Shown here: positions 44,005 to 62,719 of the stretch, one piece after another
Layout: every line of letters starts with the position of its first letter
Position numbering within the stretch: position 1 is the stretch's first letter
Source of the DNA: Nitrospira sp.
Lineage (GTDB): Bacteria > Nitrospirota > Nitrospiria > Nitrospirales > Nitrospiraceae
Assembly (NCBI GenBank): GCA_036984305.1
Contig: BQWY01000001.1
Coordinates: forward strand, 3,493,501-3,557,500
Length of the DNA stretch: 64,000 nt
Direction of reading: 5' to 3'
Position numbers and translations under genes: made by a program
The notes under the pieces: generated by a model
What the model was told of the DNA's origin: nothing
What the model saw: only the letters and a program-made list of their open reading frames with translations
The model's database searches: none

Positions 44005-44196
44005 GTGCACTCAGCCCTGCTGGGCCATTCGACCAAAGCCATGATGACTGTGCAGTATTCACGTGGCGGGCATGACTGGAATCGGATGCTACGGGAGCGA
44101 CCATGCTACTCGAACCGATCTACACGACCCCGAATTGATCCAATGGTCTGTCTTATGGACCACTTCCCGAGGCAACGACTCCATTCGAGAAAGTAG
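44005..44196 (+). pseudogene. Remnant of a tyrosine recombinase (integrase) C-terminus
   Basis: The frame reads VHSALLGHSTKAMMTVQYSR, which matches the end of phage-type integrases: the conserved GH of the LLGH motif and the catalytic tyrosine in QYSR. In a different frame just upstream, QDLR resembles the HDLRHT arginine motif, so the gene is broken by frameshifts. Nothing of the N-terminal or core domain remains. Homology ends near 44090; the rest of the frame is not conserved. Confidence 0.55.
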
Positions 44197-44226
44197 CTAA
44201 CGCACCGGAAGATCAGGAGAAAGAGT

Positions 44227-44276
44227 GGTGGTCCCAACGGGATTCGAACCCGTGTCTGAGCCTTGAGAGGGCCAAC
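44227..44276 (-). tRNA. tRNA-Glu (CTC) 3' fragment
   Basis: On the minus strand the sequence has an anticodon loop CTCTCAA (anticodon CTC), a T-arm ACGGG-TTCGAAT-CCCGT, the 3' acceptor strand TGGGACC and an encoded CCA. The matching 5' half (starting GGTCCCA with a D-arm) is absent; unrelated AT-rich DNA replaces it. It is therefore a truncated gene, the kind left at an attachment site by an integrated element. Confidence 0.65.
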
Positions 44277-45136
44277 CATCTGAGAAGTTGAGTAAATCTG
44301 TAACTACTTAGTTAACGGGCGGTCTTCCCAAATTACATCAAGAATCATGCAGTTACATCCACCGAAGCCAGCGAGTGGAATTTTCATTCAGTCTATACTC
44401 TTCATACAATTCTTTCGCTTCTGTCACGCTGGTGTCACGATCCAGCGAGAGCGGATTGACCAGACCTCGGACTAAAGTGTGACCTAGAGAACGACTTTTC
44501 TGACCTGCGGGTTCGAAGGCTGATTAGGTAGAAATTAGTAACTTACTACCCTGTCTCTGGTTTCCCGCTTTTATCAACAATGCCGGGGAGTTCTGACATT
44601 CCATCTGTTCTGGTCTTTTCCATGGATTTCGGTCCTTTTGAGCCTGTTTGAGCACAAAATTAGCACGTTGATTTCGTTATACGACCTGCGGGTTTTTGGT
44701 CACAACCAGACGGCACAGAATACCACGAAACTGCGCCAGATGAGGATGGCGAGGATGCAGACAAATGAAAATCGCGGCAAGATTTCCGCAACTCTGCAAC
44801 CTCGGCACAGCCACTTTCCAGATGGAAAAGTCCCCACGCCCCCCTAGTCCCACAATTCGTCGGCACCGCCGCAGTCGCCGAGTGGGTCGCGCTATTGGGG
44901 GGGGTATAGCAAGAAATCCCTCGCCATTACCGCTCGGGCCCAAGCAGATTGCCGGTCAGCGTAGCGGCATCGATCTACTGCATTCTAGAATTCCTCTATT
45001 TATGAACGTGTCGGCGGCTTTTGGTACATGACCCGTTCTTATCTGCTGTGATTAAATGGTTGTATATTGACGACCTTTCGGTGAATGGATAAGATCCCGC
45101 CCGCATCAATACGAAATTCCTAGTTCCACTCCGCGG

Positions 45137-45526: not shown

Positions 45527-48500
45527 GTGCCATTACAAACGTCACGACTCGTCATGGCCGGGCTCGGCTCGCGTGGCGATGCCCCACCCGACGCAATTCA
45601 ACCCCCGCTGCGCGACGGCGTGCACCTGCGCTGGGAAATGGCACGCGAGCTGGGCTTTCCGTGGTACGGCTTCTTCCTGTTTCGGCGCGAGCACCGCCAT
45701 TCCGAGCAGATCTGTATCGGTCGTGGGACAGCGAACCTCAAACCGGGCCCGTGGCCGTCCACGACCTTGGCCCTCCCCCAAGGCGAATTTTCCAGCGATC
45801 GCCCGCTCCTACTCACGGACGATTTCTCCGTCGCAGGCGTAGTCGAGTTCGATCTCCGCGACCGCCGCTATCTGCGTTTCACGCTGAGTGGCGGCCGAGT
45901 CGCCTCAGCCGTCGAAGTGCGCATCGGCTTTCGCAAAACGCGCACGGCGGGCAAGCCGGTTCGCGTCATCGCGCAATTCGGTGGTGTAGACATCACGCAG
46001 ACAGCGGTGTCCGGTACACCCAGACAAGTCGTAGTCGCGCGCCTCGAAGCTGATGCGATCACTTCGGTGGAATTCAGCAGCGAAGACGCGGCACTGATTG
46101 ATATCTGCTTTACGCCGGTCGATCAGAGCGCCACGTCGGGCTGGAAGCCGCTCAAACGCTTCAAATATCCGCTGGCCTTGCCGGTGCGACACCCGAATTA
46201 CCCCGCAAGTCCCGGCGCAACAGACATGGTGGCATCCCGGAACGAAGCGCTGAGCCGCATTCTCTACGGCCCTTCTGCCCCCTGGTCCGCATCGTTTACC
46301 GAGTTGCACGACACCCTGAGATTGCTGGTGGCCAGCGGACCGGGCGGCGCGCCGATGGCAACCAAACTGTTGCCATCCGTTCCCGGCGTGCCTTCAGCAC
46401 CCAATGGTCCGGTGCCACATCTCGAGGACTCGCCCGCGCTCGATCTCGTCCTGTTGACGACACTAAATCGGGCGATTGCCGAGATGGTCGGCCTGTCTTT
46501 CGTCGATGACACGGCCGCTCCGGGTACGCGCTACGACTATCTCATCGTCGCAAGCTGGATGGGCGCTGGCGGGAATTCCGCGAGCGCCATGCTGAATGAG
46601 ATCGCGACGAATGGTTTTGCGAACATCGATGGATACATCGTGTTCAACAAAGCCGTGGAGCCCACCCCGGCCCTCGCAGCACCCACGGGCCTGCGCAGCT
46701 ACGCGCTGCCGGGCTCAACGCTCGCAGGCCAGGGCAGCACGCTCATTGACGCGACCAACAACGCCGGCCTGCACTGGACCATCTCAATGTCCGGCGGATT
46801 CCTCACGCCCGGCCAATCCGTGATGTATCTGGTCTGGCGCGCTGATTCCGGCAACGGCAACACACCAGCCGCGGCGCCCTTCAATCTGCTGACCAAGTCG
46901 CCGGTGCTGGTGACGGAACCCGTCTTGCCGCCTGGCTCGACACCACAGCGTGCATCAGACTGGCCGCCGTTCCCGCTGCATTTCATCGACATCGGCCTCG
47001 CCGAAGGCTGGTACGGTTATACGACCAGCGGCATCGACATCTTCGGCCGCCACAGCAAGCAGAGCACGAGCGCGAAGTGGTTCCAGTGGAGTCCGGTGCC
47101 AGATCCCGAGCCCTGGTACTACATCAATCCGCCGGCGAATCAACTCGTTCATCCCACTGCCGTAAGGCTTCTCGACAAGTCCCCTCCACCGCCACCCACT
47201 GCGATCGAAGCGTTCGCGCTCGATCCCGCTGATCCCACGGTACTGCGAGATGCTGCATACCAGGCTTGGTTCAACTCGCTGAGCCCGCCAGAACGCCAGT
47301 CCATAGTCGGCTTGCGTGTTCGCTGGCAATGGACCGCGGACCAGATGCGGCAGGCTCCGGATGCCAAAGAGTTTCGGATCTATTTCCAGTCTGGGCGCAC
47401 CAATGTGCTTCTAGGGCGTATTTCCGCTGTCGCCGCCACCAGCGCAACCGAAACAGAGGTGACGACGGACATCGCCACTCCCACGGTGGATAATGCGCTG
47501 ATCGGCGCGTCACTGCGAGTCGGCTCGTTGTCGTTTCCCATCGTGGGCAGCGCTGGCGGCAATCCGCTCAAGGTTCGTGTCACCAACCTCGGTCTCACGG
47601 TCACTGCCGGAACGGTGTCGCTCACCAACGGCTCGCCGAACGTAACGGGTGCGGGCACTACATGGCACGCCGGCATGATCGGCCTGCAGTTCAACGTGGC
47701 CGGCACGCCGGAGAGCTATCGGATTCTCAACGTGGACAATCCGACCACTCTGCGCCTGTCCTCCGTGTATTCCGGGGCCACGGCAGCGGCGCAGAACTAC
47801 ACGGTCTTCGATGTTCGTCCACCGTCGAGCGGAGCGATCACGATCATCATCCCTGAGCGCTACGCGACAGGCTCGGTGTCTGCGACGAACGGTTCGGCCA
47901 CCATCATAGGCGCCGACACACAGTGGGCCGCGCCGCTCGTCGGGATGGTGTTCAAGGTCGAAGGCGACGCCGGCCGCTATCGTGTGGCCGCCGTGAACTC
48001 TCCGACCGAGCTCGTGCTCGATCACGCATACACTGGCCCGACGCGCACCAATCTCACGTACGCGGTCACGTTTCCGCTCTTCACTGACTATCGCGTACCG
48101 ACAAACTGGACCGATCGCACCTACGTCGTCGGCTTCAACGATCACGTACAAGTAATTGTCGACGGTGCGGGCCGGCCGCTGCGCAAATATGAAGTGCTGA
48201 TTCCCGCAACAGGCGACGCATTCCGCGGCGGCGTACCTCTTGTCACGTCACTCGCCGATCCAGTCGCGTACGCGCAGGTGAGCGTCAGCACCGCAGACAA
48301 CCGGCCACATACGCCGGACTCCCCCAAGTGGGCAACAGGACACTTCGGCAATCGGCCTGGCAATGAGGGCAGCGTCGGCAGCATGGCCACAATCTTCCGC
48401 GTTAGGCGCGAGCCGCCACCGCCGCCCGTGCCGCCGCCAGATGCGGAGAAAGTGTTTGCTACACCGGCGGACTATCACAGCAAGTCGTTCTATACGTATC

Positions 48501-49636
48501 GCTGGACACCCGTCGCGCACGTACGCACTCATGTCTTCCGTGCAGTCGACGATGCTGTGTTCCAGGAAGACTGGCGCCATCGGCCGCGGCCGGCAATGAA
48601 TCCCGGCGACTTCAGTCAGTTTCCCCAAGGCGAACCGCGCTGGGACCTGCTGAAGCGCCAGCAGGTGAGCGCCGAGCTCGATCAGCTCAATGGATTCCCG
48701 CAAACACCTGCCGGCAAGGCGCAAGCGCTCGCACGCTATCGCACGCTTTCGAATGATGGGCTGCGTGTTCTCGCCGGACTACCGGACAACGATCGCGCCT
48801 TCACTCAGATCACAACGTACACGCTGGACCCTGAGGACACCGCGAACTTCGATCGCCGCGGCCCGGACAGTCCTGCCAACTACGCGCCCAATCCAGGCCT
48901 GCGAGCCTACATCGACACGCTCGATGGGCGGAGCACGAACCGGTACTTCTATCGCGCAGCATATGTCGATGGCGCGAACAACATCAGCCCACTGAGCCTC
49001 TCGAGCCCACCGGTGTGGCTTCCAAACGTGGTACCGCCACGTTCGCCTGTGTTCACGCGAATCCTCGGCGGCGATCGGTCTGTAATGGTCCGCTGGGCTT
49101 CGAATCGCGAGACCGATCTCGCTGGATATCGCCTCTACCGCGCGGACAACAAGAGCGCTTCAAGAGATTTGCGTCTGATGACGCTGGTTCATGAAGAGCC
49201 CGTTCCTGCCGGGGATCCCGCCGCGCGGCCCGCCGAGGTGTCCTTCACCGATACGCCGGTGCCGGGGCTGCTGACCTTCTACTACCGTCTCGTGGCTGTC
49301 GATTCAGATGACAATGCATCTTCGCCTTCCTCGGCAGTAGCCGGTCGCGCGTATGACGAGAGCCTGCCCGTCGTCCCTGTTCCGGCCGTTGCATGGGTGA
49401 GTACCGCCGGCGTCACGCGCGCGCAGATTACTTGGAACAGCCCGGACGAGACCATGCTCCAGCGCCGCGACCCTGGCCGCTCATGGGTTGAGGTCGCCTC
49501 CTGGCGCCCGCCGGGTGCGTACACGATTCGCGATCCCTTCTCCGAGCCACAGAACACGTACGAGTATCGACTGTGGAGTCGCAAAGCCACGGGAGCCGTC
49601 AGCAAAGGCGCTGGCGTCACGCTCGTGCACGAGTAG
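45527..49636 (+). CDS. Large beta-rich protein with tail-like repeats and FN3-like ends
   Basis: 1369 aa, first gene of a four-gene cassette. No signal peptide or membrane helix is seen. The N-terminus (PPLRDGVHLRWEMARELGFPWYGFFLFRR) is distinctive but unfamiliar. Two tandem repeats at about 695-762 and 782-848 follow the pattern GTVSLTNGS...TW..G..F.V.G....YRI..V..PT.L.L...Y.G, which I know from phage tail and receptor-binding proteins. The C-terminal third has FN3-like sandwiches (about 1170-1270 and 1282-1360). Start codon is GTG 45527 or ATG 45554. Likely a structural or adhesive protein. The next gene starts 9 nt after its stop. Confidence 0.8.
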   Translation: MPLQTSRLVMAGLGSRGDAPPDAIQPPLRDGVHLRWEMARELGFPWYGFFLFRREHRHSEQICIGRGTANLKPGPWPSTTLALPQGEFSSDRPLLLTDDFSVAGVVEFDLRDRRYLRFTLSGGRVASAVEVRIGFRKTRTAGKPVRVIAQFGGVDITQTAVSGTPRQVVVARLEADAITSVEFSSEDAALIDICFTPVDQSATSGWKPLKRFKYPLALPVRHPNYPASPGATDMVASRNEALSRILYGPSAPWSASFTELHDTLRLLVASGPGGAPMATKLLPSVPGVPSAPNGPVPHLEDSPALDLVLLTTLNRAIAEMVGLSFVDDTAAPGTRYDYLIVASWMGAGGNSASAMLNEIATNGFANIDGYIVFNKAVEPTPALAAPTGLRSYALPGSTLAGQGSTLIDATNNAGLHWTISMSGGFLTPGQSVMYLVWRADSGNGNTPAAAPFNLLTKSPVLVTEPVLPPGSTPQRASDWPPFPLHFIDIGLAEGWYGYTTSGIDIFGRHSKQSTSAKWFQWSPVPDPEPWYYINPPANQLVHPTAVRLLDKSPPPPPTAIEAFALDPADPTVLRDAAYQAWFNSLSPPERQSIVGLRVRWQWTADQMRQAPDAKEFRIYFQSGRTNVLLGRISAVAATSATETEVTTDIATPTVDNALIGASLRVGSLSFPIVGSAGGNPLKVRVTNLGLTVTAGTVSLTNGSPNVTGAGTTWHAGMIGLQFNVAGTPESYRILNVDNPTTLRLSSVYSGATAAAQNYTVFDVRPPSSGAITIIIPERYATGSVSATNGSATIIGADTQWAAPLVGMVFKVEGDAGRYRVAAVNSPTELVLDHAYTGPTRTNLTYAVTFPLFTDYRVPTNWTDRTYVVGFNDHVQVIVDGAGRPLRKYEVLIPATGDAFRGGVPLVTSLADPVAYAQVSVSTADNRPHTPDSPKWATGHFGNRPGNEGSVGSMATIFRVRREPPPPPVPPPDAEKVFATPADYHSKSFYTYRWTPVAHVRTHVFRAVDDAVFQEDWRHRPRPAMNPGDFSQFPQGEPRWDLLKRQQVSAELDQLNGFPQTPAGKAQALARYRTLSNDGLRVLAGLPDNDRAFTQITTYTLDPEDTANFDRRGPDSPANYAPNPGLRAYIDTLDGRSTNRYFYRAAYVDGANNISPLSLSSPPVWLPNVVPPRSPVFTRILGGDRSVMVRWASNRETDLAGYRLYRADNKSASRDLRLMTLVHEEPVPAGDPAARPAEVSFTDTPVPGLLTFYYRLVAVDSDDNASSPSSAVAGRAYDESLPVVPVPAVAWVSTAGVTRAQITWNSPDETMLQRRDPGRSWVEVASWRPPGAYTIRDPFSEPQNTYEYRLWSRKATGAVSKGAGVTLVHE

Positions 49637-49645
49637 GAGCGAGAC

Positions 49646-51619
49646 ATGCCGGACATCGCAACGTTGAAGGCGCGTTACTTTCTCGGGGCCGTTGACGCCG
49701 ATCCGCCGACCGAGCCAGTACCCAGCACGTTCGACAACTGCAAGGTCACGCCGCTCATAGACGCATCGAGCTACAACGCGGAGCTCGAAGCGGCGCTCGC
49801 CACCGTAGGCACCGGACCCGATGCAGCCTCCAATGCAGGGCACTTCATCCTGCTGCACAACTGGTGGCTCGGACTCTCAGGGGGCGACTACAAAGGCATC
49901 AAGGGCATCGGTGGCTCGAATGGTCCGACGGTCATCAGCTCCGATCCCTACTTTCTCGATGGCCCACCCGATCCAGGTCCGCCACCCACCGGCGGCACGC
50001 GCAAGCTACTCGACATCCTGAAGGACAAGGCGCGTGTCGGTGTCGACGTGCGTGTGCTCGGCTGGATCAGCATCGGAATCATGGGCGATTCCATCTACAA
50101 CTTCTTCGCCAACCTTATCTCGTACGACATTCCTTACAGCAGCGTGAATGCGCAGACGATGCAGTCGATCGCCGACCTGCGCGCGGACGACACGTTGCGC
50201 CCTCACATGAACGCGGTCCTGAACACGATCGGCCACACCGCTGCCGCAACTCATACCAAATTCGTAGTCATCGGCACGAATGCGAAGACGGTGGGATTCA
50301 CGGGTGGCCTCGATTGCACCAACATACGCTGGGCGCATCCGACGCATCCGAAGGCAGGAGAATTCTGGCACGACGTCATGACCAAGATCGAAGGCCCCGC
50401 GATGCAGGCGCTATACGACTGGTTCAAGGATATGTGGTCGGAAAATCTAAAGCGCTCCGTGACGCGCTTCCATTTCGAAGGCAAGGAGATGCCGAGCTTC
50501 CTGCCACGCACGCCAGTGCTGCCGGCACGGGCACTGCCTCCAGATCCACAGCCAGAGAACCACTCGGTGCAGAGCCTGCGCACCGTGCCGAAGTTCAACT
50601 ACAAGTGGTACAACTGCCTGCCCCAGAATCCGCCGGCCTCCTTCGCTCCGCAAGGCCTGTTCGAGATTCGTGCCGCGCTCCGCAAGGCACTGCGTGCGGC
50701 CGACACCTACATCTATATGGAAGACCAGACTTTCTGGTCTCGTGAAGTCTTCGACTGGGTGAACGAAGCAATCAAGAATAGTCCGGATCTGCGCGTCATT
50801 CTCCTCACCAACGGGCGAACAGATCCGCTCGATCCGGAGTTCGCAGGCGGCCATCTTACCGGCGCGATTAATCACCATCTGCTCAAGGATCTGACGCCGG
50901 CTCAGATCGACCGCGTGCGCTTCTACAAACGCATGCTCGGCGACATTCCCGCGACCGACGATGCGGGCAACCCCCTCACCATCGATGTCATCTCCGCCGC
51001 AATGGTGGACGGCAAGTGCCACCTCGCCCTGTCGGAGATCTCGAGCGTCAACATTCCAGAGAACAAGATCAGAGCGCAGAACTTGGTGCTCGGCAACGCG
51101 GGGGGCACTCACAGGATCGTCGGCAATCCGGCAATCACGAAGAACAATCCCGTCGTCGTGGCCGTGAATCCCGTTGGTGGCGCGTGCCCGGTGCCGGGAA
51201 CGTACGCATTCGGGCAGCGACTTGGCATGGTCATTCATACGAAGAGCACGCTTATCGACGATGCGTGGGCGTTCATCGGCTCAGCGAACATCATGCGCCG
51301 CTCGCTATACTCGGACTACGAGCACTGCATCGCCATGCTCGATCCGGCGGAGATTCTGGTGAGGGACTACCGTTCGGCGCTGTGGTCAGATCACTTCCGA
51401 CATCCTACCCCTTCGGACTTCAACGACATCCAGGCGGGTCTGCATGCCTGGGAGTCCAGCTGGTTTGCTGCCGGTGCCGCGCCTGCCCGGCCGGAGCTTC
51501 TCGAGCCCATTGCGCTGCCGATGGAGCCGGATCTGCTGCTCACGGATGAACAGAAGACGAAATACAACGAGTACGAAGATGTTGACTCGCGCGAACCCTG
51601 GGGAGGGCTCTGCCCATGA
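49646..51619 (+). CDS. Phospholipase D superfamily protein
   Basis: 657 aa. The second HKD site is canonical: HTKSTLID (His531, Lys533, Asp538) followed by GSAN. The first half-site reads HTKFVVIG (His203, Lys205) followed by GGLD; the usual aspartate is missing. Both halves of the bilobed PLD fold are recognisable by DVRVLGW, FTGGLDCTN and YIYMEDQTFW. Substrate is open: phospholipid, nucleic acid or other phosphodiester. No signal peptide. Its stop overlaps the start of the giant gene by 4 nt. Confidence 0.85.
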   Translation: MPDIATLKARYFLGAVDADPPTEPVPSTFDNCKVTPLIDASSYNAELEAALATVGTGPDAASNAGHFILLHNWWLGLSGGDYKGIKGIGGSNGPTVISSDPYFLDGPPDPGPPPTGGTRKLLDILKDKARVGVDVRVLGWISIGIMGDSIYNFFANLISYDIPYSSVNAQTMQSIADLRADDTLRPHMNAVLNTIGHTAAATHTKFVVIGTNAKTVGFTGGLDCTNIRWAHPTHPKAGEFWHDVMTKIEGPAMQALYDWFKDMWSENLKRSVTRFHFEGKEMPSFLPRTPVLPARALPPDPQPENHSVQSLRTVPKFNYKWYNCLPQNPPASFAPQGLFEIRAALRKALRAADTYIYMEDQTFWSREVFDWVNEAIKNSPDLRVILLTNGRTDPLDPEFAGGHLTGAINHHLLKDLTPAQIDRVRFYKRMLGDIPATDDAGNPLTIDVISAAMVDGKCHLALSEISSVNIPENKIRAQNLVLGNAGGTHRIVGNPAITKNNPVVVAVNPVGGACPVPGTYAFGQRLGMVIHTKSTLIDDAWAFIGSANIMRRSLYSDYEHCIAMLDPAEILVRDYRSALWSDHFRHPTPSDFNDIQAGLHAWESSWFAAGAAPARPELLEPIALPMEPDLLLTDEQKTKYNEYEDVDSREPWGGLCP

Positions 51620-54600
51620 ACCAGCAGGAGCTCACTCCAGTCTTCGTCAACATCGGGCAGCTCGCGAAGTGGCCCGCGTTTCTGCCGCAGATCCAGGACG
51701 GCTCAATATTAGAGCACGTGTGGGCGCAGGCCTTCGAATCGTCGGCCTCACCCGATCTGGTGCAGGCGAAGACGACGCTCTTCATCGACAAGGAGATCGT
51801 GCTCGGAATTCCCGGCCTCGACGCGGTTGCGCTGACCGTGGCCGCGGGTTCGGGCGGCACGATCATTCCGCTCGAAGTGGAAGTATTCCCGGAGCTCTTC
51901 ATCCGCATCAGCGACGTGCCGCTCGCGTTGCGCCTCAAGATGGACTTGTTCCGCCCCGTGCGGCCCGTTGGCACGCCCCAGCCCGGTCAGCCGCGGCAGT
52001 TCGAGATTGATCCCGACAAGAACTTCGTCGACATCCAGCTCGCTCGCGTCACGCTCGAAATAAATGCCGATGGAGGCATCAACATCCAGGTGAACGGCGG
52101 CATTGATTTGCCACCGTGCATGCTCGGCGAGAGCAACATCGTCATCGAGGCGAAAGGTATCACGCTGCACCTCGATCCGGACTCGCCGCCGGCCGGCAAA
52201 CCGGTCGGCTGGCGCGGAATTCACATCGGGTCGGCCGCGCTGTATCTGCCGGGCGAGCTCGCAGGCGTCGTCGGCAATCTGTCGCTGACCGATGCTTACA
52301 TCGGCAATGGCGGCTTCTCGGGCACGGTTGGCAGCACGTGGACGCCGGCTCTCACGGCCAGCCTCTTCGGCATGCAGTTCTCGCTGAAGCAGGTGTCTCT
52401 CACGTTCGTGCAGAACTCGCTCACCACCGGATCGATCATCGGCGATGCGACGCTGCCCTTCTTCGATGCGCCGCTCGAAGTGGAAATCTGCCCGAACATG
52501 AATGGGCCCTTCCTCGTGCGGCTCACGAGCCCCGGCGGGCTGGTCACGCTCACGAAGCCCGGCATCCTCAGCCTCGCCGTGGAGAACCTCGGATTCAAGG
52601 TCGACAGCGGGCTCTTCACCGTCATGCTGAGCGGCAAGATCACACCGCTGGTCGGCGGGCTCGACTGGCCCGCCTTCACCGTGCGTGAGCTCTCGATCGA
52701 TTCGCAGGGACACGTGCATGTCGATGGCGGCTGGCTCGATCTGCCGAACCAGTCCGCGCTCGACTTCCACGGCTTCAAGCTCGAAATCACCAAGATCGGC
52801 TTCGGCAACAGCGAAGACGGCGGCAAGTGGATCGGCTTCTCCGGCGGGCTGAAGCTCGTCGACGGACTCTCGGCCGGGGCTTCGGTCGAGGGCCTGCGCA
52901 TCACCTGGTACGACGATGGGCGGCCGGTGGGTGTCTCCCTGAACGGCGTGGGCATTGAGCTGCTGATTCCCTCGACGCTACGGCTGAAGGGCGCCATTTC
53001 CTATCGCGATCTGATGGTCGGCTCCGAGCACGTGCATCGCTTCGATGGTCGCATCAAGCTTGAGCTCCTCGCGCTCGACTTCAGTGTCGATGCCACGCTT
53101 GTCGTCGGGACGGCAACCGGCCCGCAGGGTCAGTACACCTTCCTCGCGATCTATCTTGATGTCGAGCTTCCCGCGGGCATTCCGCTCGGACCAACAGGCA
53201 TCGGCCTTTACGGCATGGCGGGCCTTTTCGCAATGAGCATGGAGCCCGACAAGCACCCGGACGAAGAATGGTACGGCATCGGTCCTGGCGAAGGCTGGTA
53301 CCACCGCGGCACCGTGGGCGTCACGGACCTCGCGACGAAGTGGGTGAACCGCCGCGGCAGCCTCGCGCTTGGCGCGGGCGTCACGCTCGGAACCGTGGCA
53401 GACAATGGTTTCTGCTTCTCCGGCAAGATGCTGCTGGTCCTGGTGTTCCCCGGCCCGATCCTGATGATCGAGGGCAAGGCGAACATCCTGCGCGAGCGTT
53501 CGGCGCTCGACGAAGAGCCCATCTTCCGCGCGCTCGCCGTGCTGGACGGCCGGGCCGGCACCCTGCTCTTCGGCCTCGACGCGCAATACAAGTACGGCAC
53601 GGGCGGCGAGCTCATCGACATTCGCGGCAGCGTCGAAGCGTTCTTCAGCTTCGTCGATGCGAGCGCGTGGCATCTGTACCTTGGCGTGCGCGACCCGCGC
53701 GAGAAACGCATCCGCGCGCAGATCCTGAATCTCTTCGAAGCCAATGCGTACTTCATGCTTGACGCGCGCCAGCTCGCGATGGGCGCGTGGGTCGGCTACG
53801 ACAAGTCCTGGAAGTTCGGCCCGCTCAAGGTGACCGTGGAGGCCTGGATCGAAGGCAACGCGGTGCTCAGCTGGAAGCCGGTGCATCTCACCGGCGATCT
53901 GTGGCTGCATGGCAAGGCGGAGCTGTCCGTGTTCGGCTTCGGGCTTGGCTTGAGTGTCGACGCGCGCTTCCAGGCGGAAGTGTTCGATCCCTTCCACTTG
54001 CTCGCGAGCTTCTCGGTCGGCATCAACCTGCCGTGGCCGCTGCCGGATTTCAGCGCCACCATCAAGCTGGAGTGGGGCCCGGACCCGGTCAATCCGCCGC
54101 TGCCGATGCCGCTCAAGGAAATTGCAATCGAGCATTTCAAGGTGACAGAGAGCTGGCCACTGCCGCGCAGTGGCGCCACGCCTTTGCTGCTACCGAACTA
54201 CGATACCGATGGGGATGGCTTCCGAAGCGATCCAACACCACCCTTCGCGACACAAGTGCTCGCACCGGCACCGGCCTACGCACCGGTCGTGCCGCTTGAC
54301 TCACGTCCGCACATCACGTTTGGGCGCTCCGTCCACGATGCCGCGCTCGTCGGAGTGAATGCACTGCCGGTGATCCCCGCCTACGAGCGCATCGGTGATC
54401 CGCAAAAGAACCAAGGGCCGGTTCAGGCCAAATACCTGCTGACCGAAGTCGCGCTCGACAAGTGGGCGGGCAGCGGCTGGACTGCCGTTGCGCGCAAAGG
54501 CACGACAGCGAATCCGCCCGGTGTCGAAGCGATGTTCGGCTCCTGGGCGCCGATGCCGGCCATGCCTGATGGCAACGGCGAGAACACCGGACAGGTGAAA

Positions 54601-57600
54601 CTCTGGCTCTGGTCGAAGTCTGGATTCGACTACTCGCGGCACAGCGGCCGCGCGTGGGAAGACTGGTTCACGGATCGCTTCGACGGTTATCCATGCCCGC
54701 CCCCGCTGCGGGATCGCACCGTCTGCTGCAACCTCGAAGGTGTCGACCCCGAGAGGCTGATCACCGCGCCCTGGCAATGCCCGAACACGCCGGAGATCCT
54801 GCTGTTGTGGGTGAATCCCAAGATCCTGCACGTCGATATTCTGCCTAGGTCGATCCAGGGCAAAACGCACGCGCTGTGTTTCACCGAGCCGGGGCCAATC
54901 AACGACTGGGGCCCGACGCTCTTCATCCAGTTCCCGGTGGCGCCAGTCAAGGGCGCGCGGATCACTGTCGTCTCGCAGGGCGACACGCGCATCGAAGCGC
55001 TCGCCTTCGATGCGGACGGCCAGCAGTTCGGCACATTCACGCCGGTGAACAACGTCATCGTCGTGAAGGGCAAGACGTGCACCAGCGTCGTCGTCCGCAG
55101 CCCGAAGAAGTTCTGCGTGCTTGAGGTATGCGTCGTCATCGGCCCAAGCAAGGAAGATCTGCAGGCGCTCGAAGACATGATCCAGCACGCGCAGGATGAG
55201 CTCGCGCGCTGGTCGCAGAAGGGTGCGGTGTTAGAGCCCTTCACGACGTACCGGCTGAAAGTCGTCACGCGCATCGAGACGACAGACGATCCGATCGGCG
55301 ACTTCGATCACACCGAGTTCGGCTACTTCAGAACCGAAGGTCCGCCGGGGCTCGTTAATCCCTCGACGCCCATCGGCTCGCCGGGCGAATTCCAGAGCGC
55401 GCTGCGCGACCTCAACCGCTACGTGCGGCAGACAATTCCGCGCACGGTGGCTGGCGCGGACGAGAAACCGTCGTTGCCGCGGCCCGTGTATCGCGGCTAC
55501 GACGTCGGCGTCGAGTTCAATGAGGACTACGTCGACCTCATGTATCGCATCAGCCGGCGCGATCTCGGGCTCTACCTCTTCGACAACAACAATCGCCCGG
55601 TGCGGGACGCGCGCGGGCGGCTCATTGCCCTGACAAACCGGTGGGGTACTGCGGAAACGCTTGCGCTCACGCAGACCGACACACACTGGATCAGCACGAT
55701 CAACGCCACCGCGTGCGTGAAGCTCGACACCACGGGCATCCCACACTCGGTGACACTGACTTCCGCAAACGAAGCGCAAGTGCTCTCGGCCGATACGCTA
55801 TACGAAGCGCGGCTCGTGCCCCTGTTGCTGCATGACTCATTCGCGACGCCCGCACTCGGCGCGACGATCGATGGGCCTGCCGGCACACTCGACGGCTGGG
55901 TTGTCCTCGACGAAGGCACGAACGACGCGCCTTCGCACTGGGAGATTCGTGAAGCTGGCGTACCGTCGGCACGATACATCGTGCAAACCCGCAACACATG
56001 GGGCGGAACGGTGGACGGCGGGGACCCGGTGAAGCCCGGTGCGCTGCTGTTGCGCGCGGACAATCCAGCCTTGCCAGCCGATCACGCCGAACAGCCAGGC
56101 AACTGGACCGATTATCGCCTCAACGTGTACGTGCGTTCGGAGGACGACGACGCGATCGGTGTGGTGTTCCGCTTCGTCGACCGCTACTGGCACTACCGCT
56201 TCGTGATGGATCGCGAGCGCCGTTATCGCCGGCTACTGCGGATTGCCGCTGGAACGACGACCGTGCTCGCAGAGGACGACTTCATCTATCAGAAGGATCA
56301 GGATTATCTGATCACGGTCGAGGCCATAGGCGGCTCGCTCCGCATCCACCAGGACCGGGAACCCGTGTTCGCTGCGGAAGATGCGAGCATAAGCCACGGC
56401 CGCATCGGCTTCTACTGCTGGGGGAACCAGGGCGCGCGCTTCAGCGACGTCACCGTCGATGACTATCGCGCCGCTGCGCCCGTGCCTTACCGATTCAAGT
56501 TTACAACGTCCTCGTTCGTGAACTTCTTCCATCACCTGCACAGCTATCAGGACGAGACGTGGCGCGTCGATCTCCCCGCCGGCACGGACATCGCGCCGGA
56601 AGTCGCGCACGCGGTCGCTCCCGGACCGGTGATTGCCGAGCCCGAGGCCCGCGCGTATGAAGCCCTGGTGGGCAAAATCAGCGCCGCTGCCGACGCGCCG
56701 CCTGAGGCAACCGAAACGCGCGTGAGTCGCGTGGATCAGGATGGAAATGCCCTCGCGCTTTGGATCGAAAGCCCGGAACCCATCGACTGGGCCCGCACCG
56801 ACATCTTGGTCGCGAGTGTGGCGCGCTCCGTGGAGGCGCCGTCCGTGCCCAGCGTTCTGAAGCTTACCGATGTGACATTCGCTCACACACCGGCAGCCGA
56901 CGATGAATCCGTCACGCTGCTGTTCCGGAACGCCGTGAGTCCCTCGGACTGGGCGATTCAGCATCGGCGTGTGCCGGGCCCGCTGACGATGCCTACAGAA
57001 GGCGCGCTGCTCTTCCGCGACGATTTCGCCGGAGAGGACCGCGGCCTGCTCTTCCACGAAACGTTCGGCTCGAATGCGCTCGATCACTATCAGATCGTCG
57101 ACGAAGGCTCGCAGCTCGGCCCGTCAATCTGGAGCGTGAGCGGCGGACAAATCCATCAGACGAGCAACGTGTATGGCGGCTCGGTAGCAGCCTCCGATGC
57201 GGCGAAGCCGGGAACCTACGCCATCGTCGGGCGCGGTGACTGGCGCGACATCCGTGTGCGCGCCACACTCAGCGCGCAGGACAACGATAGCATCGGCATC
57301 GCGTTCCGCTGGAAGGACAGCGACAACTATTACCGCTTCTCCATGGATGCCGAGCGGAGCTTCCGACGGCTCGTGAAGAAAATGAATGGCGTCGTCTCCG
57401 TACTCTGGGAAGACGCGGTCGCCTATGCGCTAAATCAGACGTATGACATTGACGTCGTGGCCGTCGGCGATCGGCTGATCGGCTATCTGAACAACCAGCT
57501 GCTGTTCAACGTGCGTGACGCGGAACTGCAGCAGGGCCAGGTTGGGCTCTATTGCTGGGCGAATCAATCTGCTCACTTCCATGCGCTCGACGTCGAACGC

Positions 57601-60300
57601 GCGACGGGGCTGTACATCCTGTGGGAGCCCGCGTTCAACGACATGGGCGGCCTCGAGACTGTCGTGGAGAACATGGCGCAGGGGCTGCCTGTGCAGTGGA
57701 ACGCTGCATCGGGAGTGCTGCGCCAGTCCTCTGGCGTGTTCGTGCCCGACACGACAGCGCACAAGCCGGGCACTTACGTTGTGGGCGGCGAAGATCGCTG
57801 GTCCGACATCGTGATCTCGGCAACGCTGCAGTCGAGTGACCCGGACGCACTCGGTGTGATGTTCAGGTACGTCGATCGTGACAACTATTACCGCTTCTCG
57901 ATGGAGATGACGACGCCTTACAGGCGGCTTATCCGGAAAGTGGGCGGCGTCGTGTCTGTGCTCTGGCAGGATGCTGTGCCGTTGGTCACGGGCCAGACGT
58001 ATGCGCTGACGTTGCGCGCTCAGGGTCCACGTCTCACCGGCTATCTGAATGGCCAGATGCTGTTCGATGTCTACGACTCTGCGCATATCGCCGGCCGCGT
58101 GGGCTTCTATACCTGGGCCAACTCCGACTCCAATTTCTCGCGAGTGCTCGTCACGAATGCGACGCGCCAGCTCGATGCGTGGACGCTGAATGATGAAGGC
58201 ACCGTCGGTGGGCCATCGATATGGCGACTCGGCCACGGTTGGCTACGCCAATCTTCGAACATCGGCGGCGGCGCCCTGCCGGATGCGCCGGGCACGTATG
58301 CCATCTGGTCTAGTGGCGCCGCGGATGCTCGTATCCGCGTGCGATTGCGCTCGGATGCGAATGGCGCCATCGGCATCGCGTTCAGATTCAGCGATACGCG
58401 CAACTACTATCGCTTCTCGGTAAGTAACTCCCCGCCCTATCGGCGGCTCATCAAGAAAGTTGACGGCGTCACCACAGTGCTGTGGCAGGACGTGACCGGA
58501 TTCCCGCCTGGCAGCGTCCTCGACTGGACATTCGACGTCATAGGCGGCGTCATCGCGGGCTATGCGGCGGACGCGCAGGTCTTCCGTGTCCTCGACACTT
58601 CGCTCGCGACGGGCGATATCGCGCTTTATTGCGCCGGCAACGATGGCGCGTGCTTCGAAGACATCGAAGTTCGCGTACCGCCGCTACAGGCATACGCGTT
58701 GTTCGAAGATCGCTTCGCGACCGGTGACATGACTGCGTGGAACGTGCTCGACGAGGGGACATCATCAGCCCCATCGGCCTGGAACGTGGTCGGCGGATAC
58801 TTGCAACAGACATCGGAGATCTTCTCGCAGCCCATCGACCGCGATACGTTGGACAAGCGCGGCACACTGGCACTCGCTGGAGACCCCGCGTGGCGCGACT
58901 ACGTGTTGACTGTGCGCGTCAAATCAATCGACGATGATGCGGTAGGCGTAGTAATGCGGTACCTCGACGCCACTCACTTCTATCGCTTCTCGTGGGACAG
59001 CCAGCGCGCCTATCGACGTTTCGTCAAGAACGTTGGTGGAGTCTGGGCGCTACTCTGGGAGGACAATGCAGCCTATGAAGTGGGTCGCGAGTACGAACTA
59101 ACGTTTGTGCTAGACGGGTCTGCACTGCGCGGCTATCTCGATGGCGTGCCGCTCTTCGTAGTGGTCGACTACGACATACCGGCCGGTCGGATCGGGCTGT
59201 ACACGTGGGGCAATGCTCTGGCGCAGTTCAGACAGATCGCCGTGTATCCCCTGGCGCCGCTCGCTCATCGCCATCTGCTCGATGATCCGTTGCAGGTGGA
59301 AGTGGCGCGCCGCTGGATGCCCCTCGGCGAAGGCAATATCGGTGGCCCCTCTGCGTGGAGTGTGGTGGATGGCTGGATGACACAGACGTCGGCCATCCGG
59401 GACGACGCGCCACCCGACAGTACCGACAAACCAGGCACTTACAATCTGACCGGCGAGCTCGACTGGCAGGACTACCGCCTGAGCGTTCAGATGAAATCGG
59501 ACACGACCGCTGGCATCGGCGTAATGTTCCGCTATCGCAGTTCAAACAACTACTACCGGTTCTCGATGGATGCCGCGCTGGGTTACCGGCGTCTGATCCG
59601 CAAGGTCGGTGGCGTAGTGACAGTGTTGTGGGAAGACATGGTTGCGTACGTTTCAGGACGCGTCTATCTCACGACGATTGATTGCACGGGCAATCGAATC
59701 ACGGGCTATCTGAACGGCCTGCCGTTGTTCAGCGTTGAAGATGACGCACATGCTGCTGGGCGCATCGCTTTGTATAGCTGGGGCAACACCGCCGCAAGCT
59801 TCAACGAAGTGCGTGTGACTCCTGCGTCCTGGATGACGTACTTCCAATTCGGTGCAGAAAAGGTGCGAGCGGCAGGCACGCGCCTGAGACTGTTCTCAGG
59901 CAATGCCGCTGATGCGCCCGCGGCGGTACCGCTCGAAGAAAGACGTTTCCGGGCCATGCTGGGCGACCGAGGCCGACCGCAACTGACCCCTCAGTCAGTG
60001 CCGATACGCCTGATCTCGCCAGTTCCGGCCGTGGCTCAGCAGCGTGTCTTCATCGACGGCTCACTATTCGCCGCGAAGGCAGTTACTCTCCTGCGCAAGG
60101 CAGATCGAACAGGTTTCTTCATCATGGCCCCAACGGCTGGAGCGCCAGGCACACTGTTCGCTAAAGGCCAGCATCAGCTCCGTCTGACTTATCGCCGCAA
60201 TAACAAGACGCACGAGCCCGAGAGTGCGCTGCTGAGCCAGGCCGGAGAAGCCACAGACGAAGCAGTTACACTTAACATTCCCTGGAGTACGCATGCCTGA
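51616..60300 (+). CDS. Giant (2894 aa) repeat protein of unknown function
   Basis: No signal peptide or membrane segment. Residues 1 to about 880 are beta-rich strands with regular hydrophobic alternation (e.g. GGIDLPPCMLGESNIVIEAK; LPAGIPLGPTGIGLYGMAGL) and may correspond to a DUF6603-type region; that name is from memory and not verified. About 880-1400 is a mixed linker. From about 1403 to 2740 lie six related, lectin-like units of 170-215 residues, then a 150-residue C-terminal domain. All parts are in one uninterrupted frame of 8.7 kb. It overlaps the PLD gene by 4 nt and the following gene by 8 nt, so translation is coupled throughout. Confidence 0.85.
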   Translation: MNQQELTPVFVNIGQLAKWPAFLPQIQDGSILEHVWAQAFESSASPDLVQAKTTLFIDKEIVLGIPGLDAVALTVAAGSGGTIIPLEVEVFPELFIRISDVPLALRLKMDLFRPVRPVGTPQPGQPRQFEIDPDKNFVDIQLARVTLEINADGGINIQVNGGIDLPPCMLGESNIVIEAKGITLHLDPDSPPAGKPVGWRGIHIGSAALYLPGELAGVVGNLSLTDAYIGNGGFSGTVGSTWTPALTASLFGMQFSLKQVSLTFVQNSLTTGSIIGDATLPFFDAPLEVEICPNMNGPFLVRLTSPGGLVTLTKPGILSLAVENLGFKVDSGLFTVMLSGKITPLVGGLDWPAFTVRELSIDSQGHVHVDGGWLDLPNQSALDFHGFKLEITKIGFGNSEDGGKWIGFSGGLKLVDGLSAGASVEGLRITWYDDGRPVGVSLNGVGIELLIPSTLRLKGAISYRDLMVGSEHVHRFDGRIKLELLALDFSVDATLVVGTATGPQGQYTFLAIYLDVELPAGIPLGPTGIGLYGMAGLFAMSMEPDKHPDEEWYGIGPGEGWYHRGTVGVTDLATKWVNRRGSLALGAGVTLGTVADNGFCFSGKMLLVLVFPGPILMIEGKANILRERSALDEEPIFRALAVLDGRAGTLLFGLDAQYKYGTGGELIDIRGSVEAFFSFVDASAWHLYLGVRDPREKRIRAQILNLFEANAYFMLDARQLAMGAWVGYDKSWKFGPLKVTVEAWIEGNAVLSWKPVHLTGDLWLHGKAELSVFGFGLGLSVDARFQAEVFDPFHLLASFSVGINLPWPLPDFSATIKLEWGPDPVNPPLPMPLKEIAIEHFKVTESWPLPRSGATPLLLPNYDTDGDGFRSDPTPPFATQVLAPAPAYAPVVPLDSRPHITFGRSVHDAALVGVNALPVIPAYERIGDPQKNQGPVQAKYLLTEVALDKWAGSGWTAVARKGTTANPPGVEAMFGSWAPMPAMPDGNGENTGQVKLWLWSKSGFDYSRHSGRAWEDWFTDRFDGYPCPPPLRDRTVCCNLEGVDPERLITAPWQCPNTPEILLLWVNPKILHVDILPRSIQGKTHALCFTEPGPINDWGPTLFIQFPVAPVKGARITVVSQGDTRIEALAFDADGQQFGTFTPVNNVIVVKGKTCTSVVVRSPKKFCVLEVCVVIGPSKEDLQALEDMIQHAQDELARWSQKGAVLEPFTTYRLKVVTRIETTDDPIGDFDHTEFGYFRTEGPPGLVNPSTPIGSPGEFQSALRDLNRYVRQTIPRTVAGADEKPSLPRPVYRGYDVGVEFNEDYVDLMYRISRRDLGLYLFDNNNRPVRDARGRLIALTNRWGTAETLALTQTDTHWISTINATACVKLDTTGIPHSVTLTSANEAQVLSADTLYEARLVPLLLHDSFATPALGATIDGPAGTLDGWVVLDEGTNDAPSHWEIREAGVPSARYIVQTRNTWGGTVDGGDPVKPGALLLRADNPALPADHAEQPGNWTDYRLNVYVRSEDDDAIGVVFRFVDRYWHYRFVMDRERRYRRLLRIAAGTTTVLAEDDFIYQKDQDYLITVEAIGGSLRIHQDREPVFAAEDASISHGRIGFYCWGNQGARFSDVTVDDYRAAAPVPYRFKFTTSSFVNFFHHLHSYQDETWRVDLPAGTDIAPEVAHAVAPGPVIAEPEARAYEALVGKISAAADAPPEATETRVSRVDQDGNALALWIESPEPIDWARTDILVASVARSVEAPSVPSVLKLTDVTFAHTPAADDESVTLLFRNAVSPSDWAIQHRRVPGPLTMPTEGALLFRDDFAGEDRGLLFHETFGSNALDHYQIVDEGSQLGPSIWSVSGGQIHQTSNVYGGSVAASDAAKPGTYAIVGRGDWRDIRVRATLSAQDNDSIGIAFRWKDSDNYYRFSMDAERSFRRLVKKMNGVVSVLWEDAVAYALNQTYDIDVVAVGDRLIGYLNNQLLFNVRDAELQQGQVGLYCWANQSAHFHALDVERATGLYILWEPAFNDMGGLETVVENMAQGLPVQWNAASGVLRQSSGVFVPDTTAHKPGTYVVGGEDRWSDIVISATLQSSDPDALGVMFRYVDRDNYYRFSMEMTTPYRRLIRKVGGVVSVLWQDAVPLVTGQTYALTLRAQGPRLTGYLNGQMLFDVYDSAHIAGRVGFYTWANSDSNFSRVLVTNATRQLDAWTLNDEGTVGGPSIWRLGHGWLRQSSNIGGGALPDAPGTYAIWSSGAADARIRVRLRSDANGAIGIAFRFSDTRNYYRFSVSNSPPYRRLIKKVDGVTTVLWQDVTGFPPGSVLDWTFDVIGGVIAGYAADAQVFRVLDTSLATGDIALYCAGNDGACFEDIEVRVPPLQAYALFEDRFATGDMTAWNVLDEGTSSAPSAWNVVGGYLQQTSEIFSQPIDRDTLDKRGTLALAGDPAWRDYVLTVRVKSIDDDAVGVVMRYLDATHFYRFSWDSQRAYRRFVKNVGGVWALLWEDNAAYEVGREYELTFVLDGSALRGYLDGVPLFVVVDYDIPAGRIGLYTWGNALAQFRQIAVYPLAPLAHRHLLDDPLQVEVARRWMPLGEGNIGGPSAWSVVDGWMTQTSAIRDDAPPDSTDKPGTYNLTGELDWQDYRLSVQMKSDTTAGIGVMFRYRSSNNYYRFSMDAALGYRRLIRKVGGVVTVLWEDMVAYVSGRVYLTTIDCTGNRITGYLNGLPLFSVEDDAHAAGRIALYSWGNTAASFNEVRVTPASWMTYFQFGAEKVRAAGTRLRLFSGNAADAPAAVPLEERRFRAMLGDRGRPQLTPQSVPIRLISPVPAVAQQRVFIDGSLFAAKAVTLLRKADRTGFFIMAPTAGAPGTLFAKGQHQLRLTYRRNNKTHEPESALLSQAGEATDEAVTLNIPWSTHA
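55822..59835 (+). repeat. Six tandem lectin-like protein repeats within the giant gene
   Basis: Units begin near residues 1403, 1798, 1999, 2186, 2359 and 2549; a 180-residue spacer divides units 1 and 2. Shared pattern: DEGT..PS.W.V..G.L.Q.S, then PGTYA, then D.IGVMFRY.D..NYYRFSM....YRRLI.K..GV..VLW.D, then GYLNG..LF.V.D....GRIGLY.W.N....F. The form recalls concanavalin-like / DUF1080-type jelly rolls that bind carbohydrate. The units are diverged, not recent DNA duplications. Confidence 0.8.
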
Positions 60301-60862
60301 AACGGGCTACTCGCACGCCGGTCTTGGGTTCGGTTTCGAGGTTCCGCAGGGCTGGACGCTGGACCTGGATTCCGCGAATCCCCGCTTCCCGGTGATAATT
60401 TCGATGCGCTCAAATACCGAGCGCATTATGGTGGCCATTAGGGCTACACTAACCGTCAATAGCGCTGAGCGAGCCACGTCGATGAAGGACGAGCTGGCCG
60501 CACGAGGTATTGATGCCAAACCGGTCGCAGCTGCGCTAAGTTTTCCAGGCACCGGAAATGTCGCGACAGTCGAGTTTCAGATCGGTGGCCAGCAACAGCA
60601 GTGGATATCGATGGTCACTAACGGTGTCGAGTTTTCGTTCACTCACACGGGTTCATACGAGATCGTGAGGAAAGGCCTCGAACACATAGCCGCGACCTTT
60701 CGCATGCCGCAGGCCGAGCAGGCTCGCCAGTTTCTGATCGCCCGAGCACCGCAGAGTCCGCAGGCGCGTGCGGAGGACCTTGAGCGCATGAGTCATTTTC
60801 AACGGGTGGCCGCGCGGTTCAATGTGCCACCAGCGAAGCGGCCGGGAAAGAGAAGCGAGTAA
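60293..60862 (+). CDS. DcrB/PsbP-fold-like small protein
   Basis: 189 aa, last gene of the cassette. The start FGFEVPQGWTLDLDS...IIS and the later VEFSFTHTGSYEIVRKGLEHIAATFRMP follow the pattern of DcrB/PsbP-like proteins (strand-turn-strand with a final helix), but without their signal peptide. A basic C-terminal tail (PPAKRPGKRSE) follows. The 8-nt overlap with the giant gene links it to that system; a chaperone or adaptor role is possible. Confidence 0.7.
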   Translation: MPETGYSHAGLGFGFEVPQGWTLDLDSANPRFPVIISMRSNTERIMVAIRATLTVNSAERATSMKDELAARGIDAKPVAAALSFPGTGNVATVEFQIGGQQQQWISMVTNGVEFSFTHTGSYEIVRKGLEHIAATFRMPQAEQARQFLIARAPQSPQARAEDLERMSHFQRVAARFNVPPAKRPGKRSE

Positions 60863-61360: not shown

Positions 61361-61370
61361 TGTGTCAAAA

Positions 61371-61389
61371 ATCTTTCGCACTTTCGTTG
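61371..61389 (+). repeat. Left terminal inverted repeat of the IS256-type element
   Basis: ATCTTTCGCACTTTCGTTG matches the reverse complement of 62679-62697 with one mismatch. A further 9 bp (CCTTGATCT, 61393-61401) also has its inverted copy, at 62664-62672. Confidence 0.85.
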
Positions 61390-61404
61390 GCTCCTTGATC
61401 TAGC

Positions 61405-62614
61405 TCATGCCGTGGCGGCTTCTTCCTGAACGGCATGCGTCAGCGTTTCCATGGCGAGATACCGTCGTTTCCCCCATTTGGTACTCGCGATGTGGCGCAG
61501 TCGGGCCGCGTTCAACATGAGAGCGGAGTGGCCATCAGGAAAGGCCCCCACGACGCGCGTCCGTCGCCGAATTTCCCGGATGATCCGTTCCAGCGGGTTG
61601 TTCGTCTCAATCTGCCGCCAGTGATTGCTCGGAAAGGCAAAGTAGGCGAAGGTTTGGTGCGCCACCGCCTCGACGAGCTCGGCCGCCTTAGCCAGGCGCA
61701 GGTGCTTCAGCTTGGTGAGGACATCGGCGACCTTGCGTTCTGCGCCGCGGCGATCTTCCTGCGCATGGATCGCTTTGAGCATACGGGCCACCTCGGCCAC
61801 CTTGCCGGATGGCACGTGGCCGAAGACGTTCCGATAGAAATGCACGACGCAGCGCTGCCACTGGGCCTCGGGAAACAGCTCGGCGGCCGCCTCGACAAGG
61901 CCCAGGCACGCATCCGAGATGATCAACTGCACGCCGCTGAGACCGCGCTCCTTTAAGGACCGCAGAAACCCGCGCCACCCTTCGAGATCCTCTTTCTGCC
62001 CTTCGGCGACCCCCAGGATCTGCCGGTGCCCATCCACGCCCACGCCGATCGCCACCAACACCGACACATTCCGCACTTCTCCCGCCCAACTGCGCTTCAG
62101 CACCACGCCGTCCAGATATAGGTACGGAAACGCGCTATCCAGACTTCGCGTCCGCCACGCCTCAATATGCCGGTAAATCTTCTGGTTCAGCCGACTGACG
62201 GTCCCCGAGCTGACCCGGGTGCCCACAGCGCTTCCGTGATGTCTTCCACCCGTCGCACACTCACCCCCGCCAAGTACATCTCGACCAAGGCTTCTTCGAC
62301 CGAGGATTCCCGCCGCCGATACCGCTCAATGATCGCCGTCTCAAAGAGCAACCGTCGCAGTTTCGGCATCTTCAGCGTCACGGGGCCAGCCTTCGTCTCC
62401 AGCTTCCGCTGATAATGGCCGGCCCGGGTGTAGGCCCGCTCCGCGGCACGCTCGTACCGGCTCGCGCGACAAATCGTCTCCGCTTCGGCTTCCAGCAGCC
62501 CGTTGAGCGTCTCTTCGACGCTCGACGCACCACCTCGGCGATATGGCCCTGCAGCGGCCCCGTATCCACCCGAATCGTCTCTGTAAGCGCATCCCCCTCC
62601 GGCTGCTCTGTCAT
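61405..62614 (-). pseudogene. IS256-family transposase, broken by two frameshifts
   Basis: Starts at ATG 62614 after an ideal AAGGAGGAGG site. The protein begins TEQPEGDALTETIRVDTG; at about 62520-62535 the frame shifts and continues as VEETLNGLLEAEAETICRA ... RYRRRESSVEEALVEMYLAGVSVRRVEDITEALW. A second shift near 62225 leads into TRVSSGTVSRLNQKIYRHIE and the catalytic core with YLDGVVLKRSW (Asp), IISDACLGL (Asp) and NNPLERIIREIRRRTRVVGAFPDG (Glu). All three DDE residues are present, but no single frame links them. The element is probably immobile unless helped by another copy. Confidence 0.85.
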
Positions 62615-62678
62615 GGTGTTCCTCCTCCTTGATAGGTGACCCGCTTACCGCTCCCCGGCAAACAGATCAAGGCCACCA

Positions 62679-62697: not shown

Positions 62698-62719
62698 ATG
62701 TTACGTCATCGCATCCATC

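What the first reader, a model, noticed from the sequence alone, without database searches (positions are those of the whole stretch)
45527..60862. Undescribed four-gene cassette with a 2894-residue protein and a PLD enzyme
Four genes over 15.3 kb are packed with a 9-nt gap and overlaps of 4 and 8 nt: a large beta-rich protein with tail-like repeats, a PLD-family enzyme, a giant with lectin-like repeats, and a small DcrB/PsbP-like protein. None has a signal peptide or membrane helix, and the set is bounded by integration debris and an IS. The layout suggests a laterally moved machine: an enzyme plus two giant carrier or adhesive proteins, perhaps released by lysis or by a contractile system elsewhere. 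I do not know of a described system with this composition.
Basis: partly seen in the sequence, partly recalled or inferred. Interest (0 to 1): 0.8.

Follow-up and report, generated by a model that had tools for sequence, protein, structure and literature searches.

The report
Two giant proteins flanking a swappable enzyme
A rare, uncharacterised bacterial gene set makes two giant adhesive-looking proteins and an enzyme; the giants stay together across distant phyla and on plasmids while the enzyme between them is exchanged, which suggests an unknown modular machine for acting on membranes or cell walls.

Summary
The four genes are real, at the stated coordinates and with the stated spacing. 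Three of them (A, FN3-rich, 1369 aa; B, phospholipase-D-type enzyme; C, 2894 aa, DUF6603-related plus six LamG-like repeats) form a conserved operon. The same order A-enzyme-C occurs in two Acidobacteriota MAGs, in a further unnamed Acidobacteriota genome, and on Mycetohabitans plasmids, one of them conjugative. More divergent C-A-X versions occur in Alphaproteobacteria, other Nitrospirota and Acidobacteriota. A and C diverge in step (r=0.97) and are found together in the same 4 of 396 Acidobacteriota genomes. B does not follow them: the two closest A/C sets (58-61% identical) carry unrelated B proteins, one PLD, one with SGNH-like motifs; a divergent set carries an M15 peptidase domain. Gene 4 is unique to this genome and not part of the core.

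No core member has a signal peptide and no secretion genes adjoin. The host has an eCIS about 1 Mb away; a link is possible but unproven. Best reading: a modular carrier-plus-hydrolase system acting on envelopes or lipids outside the cell (inferred; nothing shown functionally). The Mycetohabitans copy was mentioned in 2011 as 'three large hypothetical proteins' without function. Neither structure prediction reached useful confidence.

The parts
45527..49636 (+). Gene A: 1369-aa FN3-rich protein with N-terminal hallmark DGVHLRW-x5-LGFPWYGFFLFRRE
   Evidence: ORF; homologues 34-42% identical overall next to every close C copy; FN3 similarity of the C-terminal part to PDB 5z06/2dmk
47396..48088 (+). 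Insertion in A (about aa 624-854) holding two 70-aa phage tail-fibre-type repeats; absent from Mycetohabitans A
   Evidence: PHROG 1980 E 2e-19; BLAST blocks 163-623 and 855-1255 are nearly contiguous in the homologue
49646..51619 (+). Gene B: phospholipase-D-superfamily enzyme, 657 aa; two HxK sites (H203/K205 and H531/K533/D538), the first without the D
   Evidence: Pfam PLDc_2 and PLDc above cut-off; closest solved relative plant PLD-alpha 6kz8, E 0.0015; motifs
51616..60300 (+). Gene C: 2894-aa protein, DUF6603-related N-terminal half plus LamG-like repeats
   Evidence: ORF; 45-52% identity to Mycetohabitans (annotated DUF6603) and Thermoanaerobaculia proteins
52756..54111 (+). Most conserved DUF6603-type core of C (aa 381-832), predicted all-beta with long antiparallel strands (low confidence)
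   Evidence: Alignment A8, 38-59% identity; AlphaFold2 mean pLDDT 45, about 60-80 over the first 140 aa
55933..59850 (+). Six LamG/jelly-roll (PF06439-type) repeats of C, centred near aa 1514, 1893, 2079, 2252, 2443, 2634
   Evidence: Pfam; DNA repeat family D1; motif positions for five of them, the sixth read from the translation
60293..60862 (+). Gene D: 189-aa protein without family match, overlapping the end of C in this genome only; accessory, not core
44005..44280 (.). Upstream flank: tRNA-3'-end-like fragment and integrase-end-like remnant (boundary debris)
   Evidence: ARAGORN finds no intact tRNA
61364..62704 (-). Downstream flank: IS256/Mutator-family element with terminal inverted repeats and a broken transposase frame

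Best explanation
The cassette is one copy of a rare, laterally spread, uncharacterised gene system: two giant beta-rich proteins (A, a chain of FN3-type domains; C, a DUF6603-type sheet followed by LamG-like, sugar- or surface-binding repeats) that travel together, with a separate enzyme encoded between or after them that is exchanged for other hydrolases. Most likely A and C form an adhesive scaffold that holds or presents the enzyme and brings it to a target envelope outside the producing cell, where the enzyme cuts phospholipid (PLD here), perhaps ester-linked lipid or polymer (SGNH-like motifs elsewhere), or peptidoglycan (M15-type domain in JdFR-86). Shown: the operon, its recurrence in the same order across phyla and on plasmids, co-divergence of A and C, and replacement of the enzyme. 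Inferred: that the three proteins form a complex, that they work outside the cell, the hydrolytic activities, and the target. The route out of the cell is unknown (no Sec signal in the core; lysis, or a system encoded elsewhere).
For: Same order A-PLD-C in Mycetohabitans plasmids and a Thermoanaerobaculum MAG; A-(SGNH-motif protein)-C in a Thermoanaerobaculia MAG and in Acidobacteriota genome G753. C-A-X in Rhizobium tropici, Azospirillum oryzae, JdFR-86 and the host's own family; X carries an M15 peptidase domain in JdFR-86 or, in four other loci, a mostly degenerate PLD domain (hhalign 98.6%). A and C identities correlate over 21 pairs (r 0.97, exact Mantel 2/5040). In 396 Acidobacteriota genomes A occurs in the same four that hold strong C, plus one broken remnant. 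L042 and L043 share A at 58% and C at 61%, but their B proteins are unrelated. LamG and FN3 domains. One divergent FN3-protein/C-like pair (G581) and another C-like protein (G763) have clear Sec signals, pointing to an extracytoplasmic site in relatives.
Against: No signal peptide, membrane anchor or secretion gene in any core copy. No conserved immunity gene, as an antibacterial toxin would need. The SGNH assignment rests on motifs only (no Pfam, NCBIfam or PDB match). In several C-A-X loci the PLD-like domain lacks the HxK residues, which fits a structural role better than a catalytic one.
Confidence: 0.45

Rival explanations
1. The set is a cargo or accessory module of an extracellular contractile injection system (eCIS) encoded elsewhere in the same genome.
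For: The host has an eCIS-type cluster (C1:373666-398943; sheath, tube, baseplate-like genes, a 1088-aa protein with a DUF4157-like leader). All five type-1 A-enzyme-C carriers examined have an eCIS or sheath gene: own genome, G467, G468, G753, M. rhizoxinica by literature (PMC11297309). In Acidobacteriota 3/3 type-1 carriers against 4/50 controls, Fisher p 0.0015.
Against: Sheath genes are common in the host family (57/172). JdFR-86 (100% complete), G607 and G772 carry A/C without a sheath. The set is not inside an eCIS cluster where looked at: 1 Mb away here, about 40 kb away with ordinary genes between in G467. A, B and C have no BLAST similarity to the host's eCIS proteins. Only three Acidobacteriota cases, with large genomes and possibly related.
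Confidence: 0.2
2. A lipid-handling body: the DUF6603 sheet is an amphipathic lipid-binding surface, and the enzyme remodels phospholipid of the producer itself or of scavenged membranes for nutrition or storage.
For: Enzymes are mostly lipid-active types (PLD; possibly SGNH). Among the listed structural matches to the DUF6603 core, the one with the lowest rmsd is the apolipoprotein B-100 beta belt (9bde_A, Z 9.1, rmsd 3.4 over 149 residues), with TamA/BamA barrel walls also listed. No secretion signals in core copies.
Against: The model is low confidence (pLDDT 45) and long antiparallel sheets match many unrelated proteins. LamG and FN3 repeats and the M15 peptidase version do not suit an intracellular lipid role.
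Confidence: 0.2
3. Effectors of the conjugative type IV secretion system or of other host-specific secretion, acting on eukaryotic partners (the view raised for the Mycetohabitans plasmid copy in 2011).
For: pBRH02 carries a T4SS and the same three-gene cluster (PMC3102044); some carriers are plant- or fungus-associated (Rhizobium tropici, Mycetohabitans).
Against: The window's genome, JdFR-86 and the Acidobacteriota MAGs carry the set with no such genes beside it; proteins of 1300-2900 aa would be unusual T4SS substrates (general knowledge).
Confidence: 0.08
4. An ordinary secreted adhesin cluster with an unrelated enzyme gene inserted between.
For: Domains are typical of adhesins; B's best match (Paracoccus, 32%) lies in another context.
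Against: A PLD or another enzyme-like gene occupies the slot in all type-1 copies from three phyla, with overlapping or 9-35-nt junctions; a PLD-type domain recurs in the C-A-X type.
Confidence: 0.07

Closest known systems
Mycetohabitans rhizoxinica pBRH02 cluster RBRH_03371 and neighbours (PMC3102044)
   Same: Same three genes in the same order, 42-44% identical in A and C; described in 2011 as a cluster of three large hypothetical proteins, one with a PLD domain
   Different: No function, family or wider distribution was described; B is only 28% identical over part of its length; no gene D
DUF6603 family (Pfam PF20248)
   Same: C belongs to the same superfamily by transitive similarity: G772 C scores 41.8 bits (cut-off 27) and matches window C at E 1e-26; NCBI names the Mycetohabitans protein DUF6603
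   Different: Window C itself is not detected by the Pfam model; it adds a long C-terminal LamG array
Eukaryotic-type phospholipase D (e.g. plant PLD-alpha, 6kz8)
   Same: WHD...EGP and GSAN...RRS motifs and the second HKD site
   Different: First HKD lacks its aspartate; similarity is weak (E 0.0015) and confined to the motifs; activity untested
Extracellular contractile injection systems
   Same: Present in the same genome and in the other type-1 carriers (PMC11297309)
   Different: The cassette has no sheath, tube, baseplate or ATPase and lies far away
Polymorphic toxin and Tc-type toxin systems
   Same: Conserved large carrier parts with an exchangeable enzyme; works like them at the level of modularity
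   Different: The enzyme is a separate protein, not a fused C-terminal domain; no immunity gene; no RHS or Tc-type Pfam match

Membership tests
Phospholipase D superfamily (gene B) | Profile match above curated cut-off | tested here: met
   PF13091 40.7 bits (cut-off 27), PF00614 28.2 (21.9)
Phospholipase D superfamily (gene B) | Two HxKxxxxD sites | tested here: inconclusive
   Second site complete (HTKSTLID); first has H and K (HTKFVVIG) but no D
DUF6603 (PF20248) (gene C) | Score above the family's gathering cut-off | tested here: not met
   No match at E 0.1 for window C; 18.4 bits for L042 C (cut-off 27)
DUF6603 (PF20248) (gene C) | Homology to a protein that meets the cut-off | tested here: met
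   G772 C 41.8 bits; window C vs G772 C E 1e-26
Extracellular contractile injection system | Sheath, tube, baseplate and ATPase genes in the cluster | tested here: not met
   No such match in the four proteins; sheath genes only at C1:0.375 and 2.222 Mb
Polymorphic toxin system | Toxin domain fused to a conserved N-terminal delivery part | tested here: not met
   Enzyme is a separate ORF in all type-1 copies
Polymorphic toxin system | Adjacent immunity gene | tested here: inconclusive
   No conserved small gene; D is unique to this genome
Tc toxin complex | TcA/TcB/TcC-type domains | tested here: not met
   No Pfam match of that kind in A, B or C
Anti-phage defence system | Match to defence protein models | tested here: not met
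   PADLOC: only weak PLD-motif matches to DrmC (16 bits) in B
Sec-secreted adhesin | N-terminal signal peptide | tested here: not met
   None in the core copies by hydropathy; present only in divergent relatives G581 and G763

The most novel reading that the evidence does not exclude
A previously undescribed kind of macromolecular machine: A and C assemble into a large, signal-less extracellular (or released) particle that carries an exchangeable envelope-degrading enzyme, spread by plasmids between phyla and possibly cooperating with contractile injection systems.
Probability: 0.22. Interest if true: 0.85.

Novelty: new variant of a known kind. Interest (0 to 1): 0.58.

Why it matters
It turns a set of unnamed giant genes into a definable, mobile gene system with a testable design rule (fixed A and C, exchangeable enzyme) found in a Nitrospira-type bacterium, soil Acidobacteriota, rhizobia and fungal endosymbionts. 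If the enzyme is delivered to other cells, it would be a new route of antagonism or host interaction; if not, it gives a first functional lead on DUF6603 proteins.

Tried and rejected
Pfam, PHROGs, NCBIfam and PADLOC on all four proteins gave an enzyme function only for B. Gene D: no PDB, Pfam or relative match. AlphaFold2 of A (aa 1-1200, 3 sequences): pLDDT 26, unusable. AlphaFold2 of the C core (4 sequences): pLDDT 45; its fold matches (BtuB, BamA/TamA, ApoB) are mostly with rmsd over 20 A and were not used as evidence of family. First alignments were too diverse to scan with. Scans of viral contigs and phage records with C found nothing, so no phage origin is indicated. Composition: GC 62% against 60% for the first 42 kb of the window, codon usage of A, B and C within the host range, so recent transfer is not shown by composition. 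No second copy of the tRNA fragment was found in the loci fetched, so no island ends could be set. Weak PLD hits in about 750-770-aa proteins of other genomes of the family are a different PLD group, without A or C beside them. A PLD cluster on a Paracoccus plasmid (L029) holds B's nearest match but no A or C, and its unknown neighbours match no Pfam family above cut-off.

Full report
What is there. The four ORFs lie at 45527-49636 (A, GTG start), 49646-51619 (B), 51616-60300 (C) and 60293-60862 (D), with the reported 9-nt gap and 4- and 8-nt overlaps. B is a PLD-superfamily protein whose nearest solved relative is plant PLD-alpha. C has a DUF6603-related N-terminal half and six LamG-like repeats. 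A is FN3-rich with a 231-aa insertion of phage tail-fibre-type repeats that its Mycetohabitans homologue lacks. D matches nothing above a cut-off.

Relatives. tblastn of plasmids found the same A-PLD-C order on Mycetohabitans records (four records, two inspected in full), among them the conjugative plasmid pBRH02. A scan of 84,980 genomes with a C alignment found two Acidobacteriota MAGs with A-enzyme-C (L042, L043) and JdFR-86 with C-A-M15 peptidase. Further C-A-X sets lie in Rhizobium tropici, Azospirillum oryzae, several genomes of the host's own family (G005, G358, G378) and Acidobacteriota; Paracoccus aminophilus has a C-A pair. In the host's family only 6 of 175 genomes, the host included, have a C relative, and the window's copy is far closer to Acidobacteriota and Mycetohabitans copies (44-48% in the first 1100 aa of C) than to those (about 25% over a 390-aa core). 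This pattern implies lateral transfer, though base composition does not date it as recent.

The giants belong together, the enzyme is exchanged. Over seven sets the pairwise identities of A and C correlate at r 0.97 (exact Mantel 2 of 5040). In a sample of 396 Acidobacteriota genomes strong C (E below 1e-100) occurs in four genomes, and A in exactly those four plus a broken remnant in a fifth. B breaks the pattern. L042 and L043 are the closest pair in A (58%) and C (61%), yet L043 has a PLD (57.6 bits) and L042 an 815-aa protein unrelated to it, with GDSW, GGND and DExHL motifs of the SGNH-hydrolase type that are conserved in the G753 homologue. That last assignment rests on motifs alone; no profile library supported it. 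The JdFR-86 third protein has an M15 peptidase domain above cut-off (29.1 bits, cut-off 23.2). In four C-A-X loci the third protein holds a PLD-like domain (profile probability 98.6%), in most of them without the HxK residues, so the PLD module recurs even where catalysis seems lost.

Where it acts. None of the core A and C proteins has a signal peptide by hydropathy and no secretion genes sit beside them. A divergent FN3-protein/C-like pair (G581) and another C-like protein (G763) carry clear Sec-type signals. Surface-binding domain types and envelope-directed enzymes point outward, but export is not shown. A contractile link is suggested by all five type-1 carriers having eCIS or sheath genes (PMC11297309). 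It is weakened by a 33% base rate in the host family, by carriers without any sheath and by physical separation.

Structure. Only window and the search for related loci sequences could be folded, so alignments had 3-4 rows. A failed (pLDDT 26). The C core gave an all-beta model with about 20 long antiparallel strands at low confidence; the fold matches (outer-membrane barrels, ApoB-100 beta belt) are treated as a lead only.

Previous knowledge. No paper in the library mentions DUF6603. The B. rhizoxinica genome paper mentions the pBRH02 cluster in one passage as three large hypothetical proteins, one with a PLD domain, in the context of possible T4SS substrates (PMC3102044). The system is therefore undescribed in function, distribution and modularity as far as this library shows, but not wholly unseen.

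Verdict. Observation confirmed; interpretation partly supported: a genuine, laterally spread, modular system of A, an exchangeable enzyme and C, with D accessory and the mechanism inferred. It works like a modular carrier-effector system but fails the membership tests of the known ones that could be tested.

Noticed in passing
window 43616-43684 (-): Fluoride riboswitch (RF01734, 55 bits) with no crcB seen in the next 700 bases; the next gene on that strand is a 104-aa helix-hairpin-helix (ComEA-like) ORF with a signal-like N-terminus at 42911-43225.
   Followed up: partly
window 62720-63958 (-) and L015:11149-14784: A caspase-like (Peptidase_C14) gene at the window edge has a second copy about 10 kb further on, 99.5% identical over 408 aa; the second ORF is 1211 aa and WD40-rich.
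   Followed up: partly
G000:C1:373666-398943 (L011, L012): eCIS-type cluster: 670-aa sheath, tube, DUF4157-leader-like 1088-aa protein, baseplate- and spike-like genes.
   Followed up: partly
L029 (NZ_CP102356.1 116864-142315): Paracoccus plasmid cluster: PLD related to gene B amid seven unknown 700-820-aa proteins, a tyrosinase and a trypsin-like protease; no Pfam family above cut-off in the unknowns.
   Followed up: partly
window 61364-62704: IS256/Mutator element whose transposase reading frame is broken: the N-terminal part lies in another frame.
   Followed up: partly
L085 (G468:C108): The Thermoanaerobaculum MAG that carries A-PLD-C holds a second, divergent C-A type locus (2155, 1664 and 1152 aa).
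   Followed up: no
L091 (G581:C256) and L093 (G763:C30): Divergent DUF6603-like giants with Sec-type signal peptides; the G763 one has four PKD domains.
   Followed up: partly
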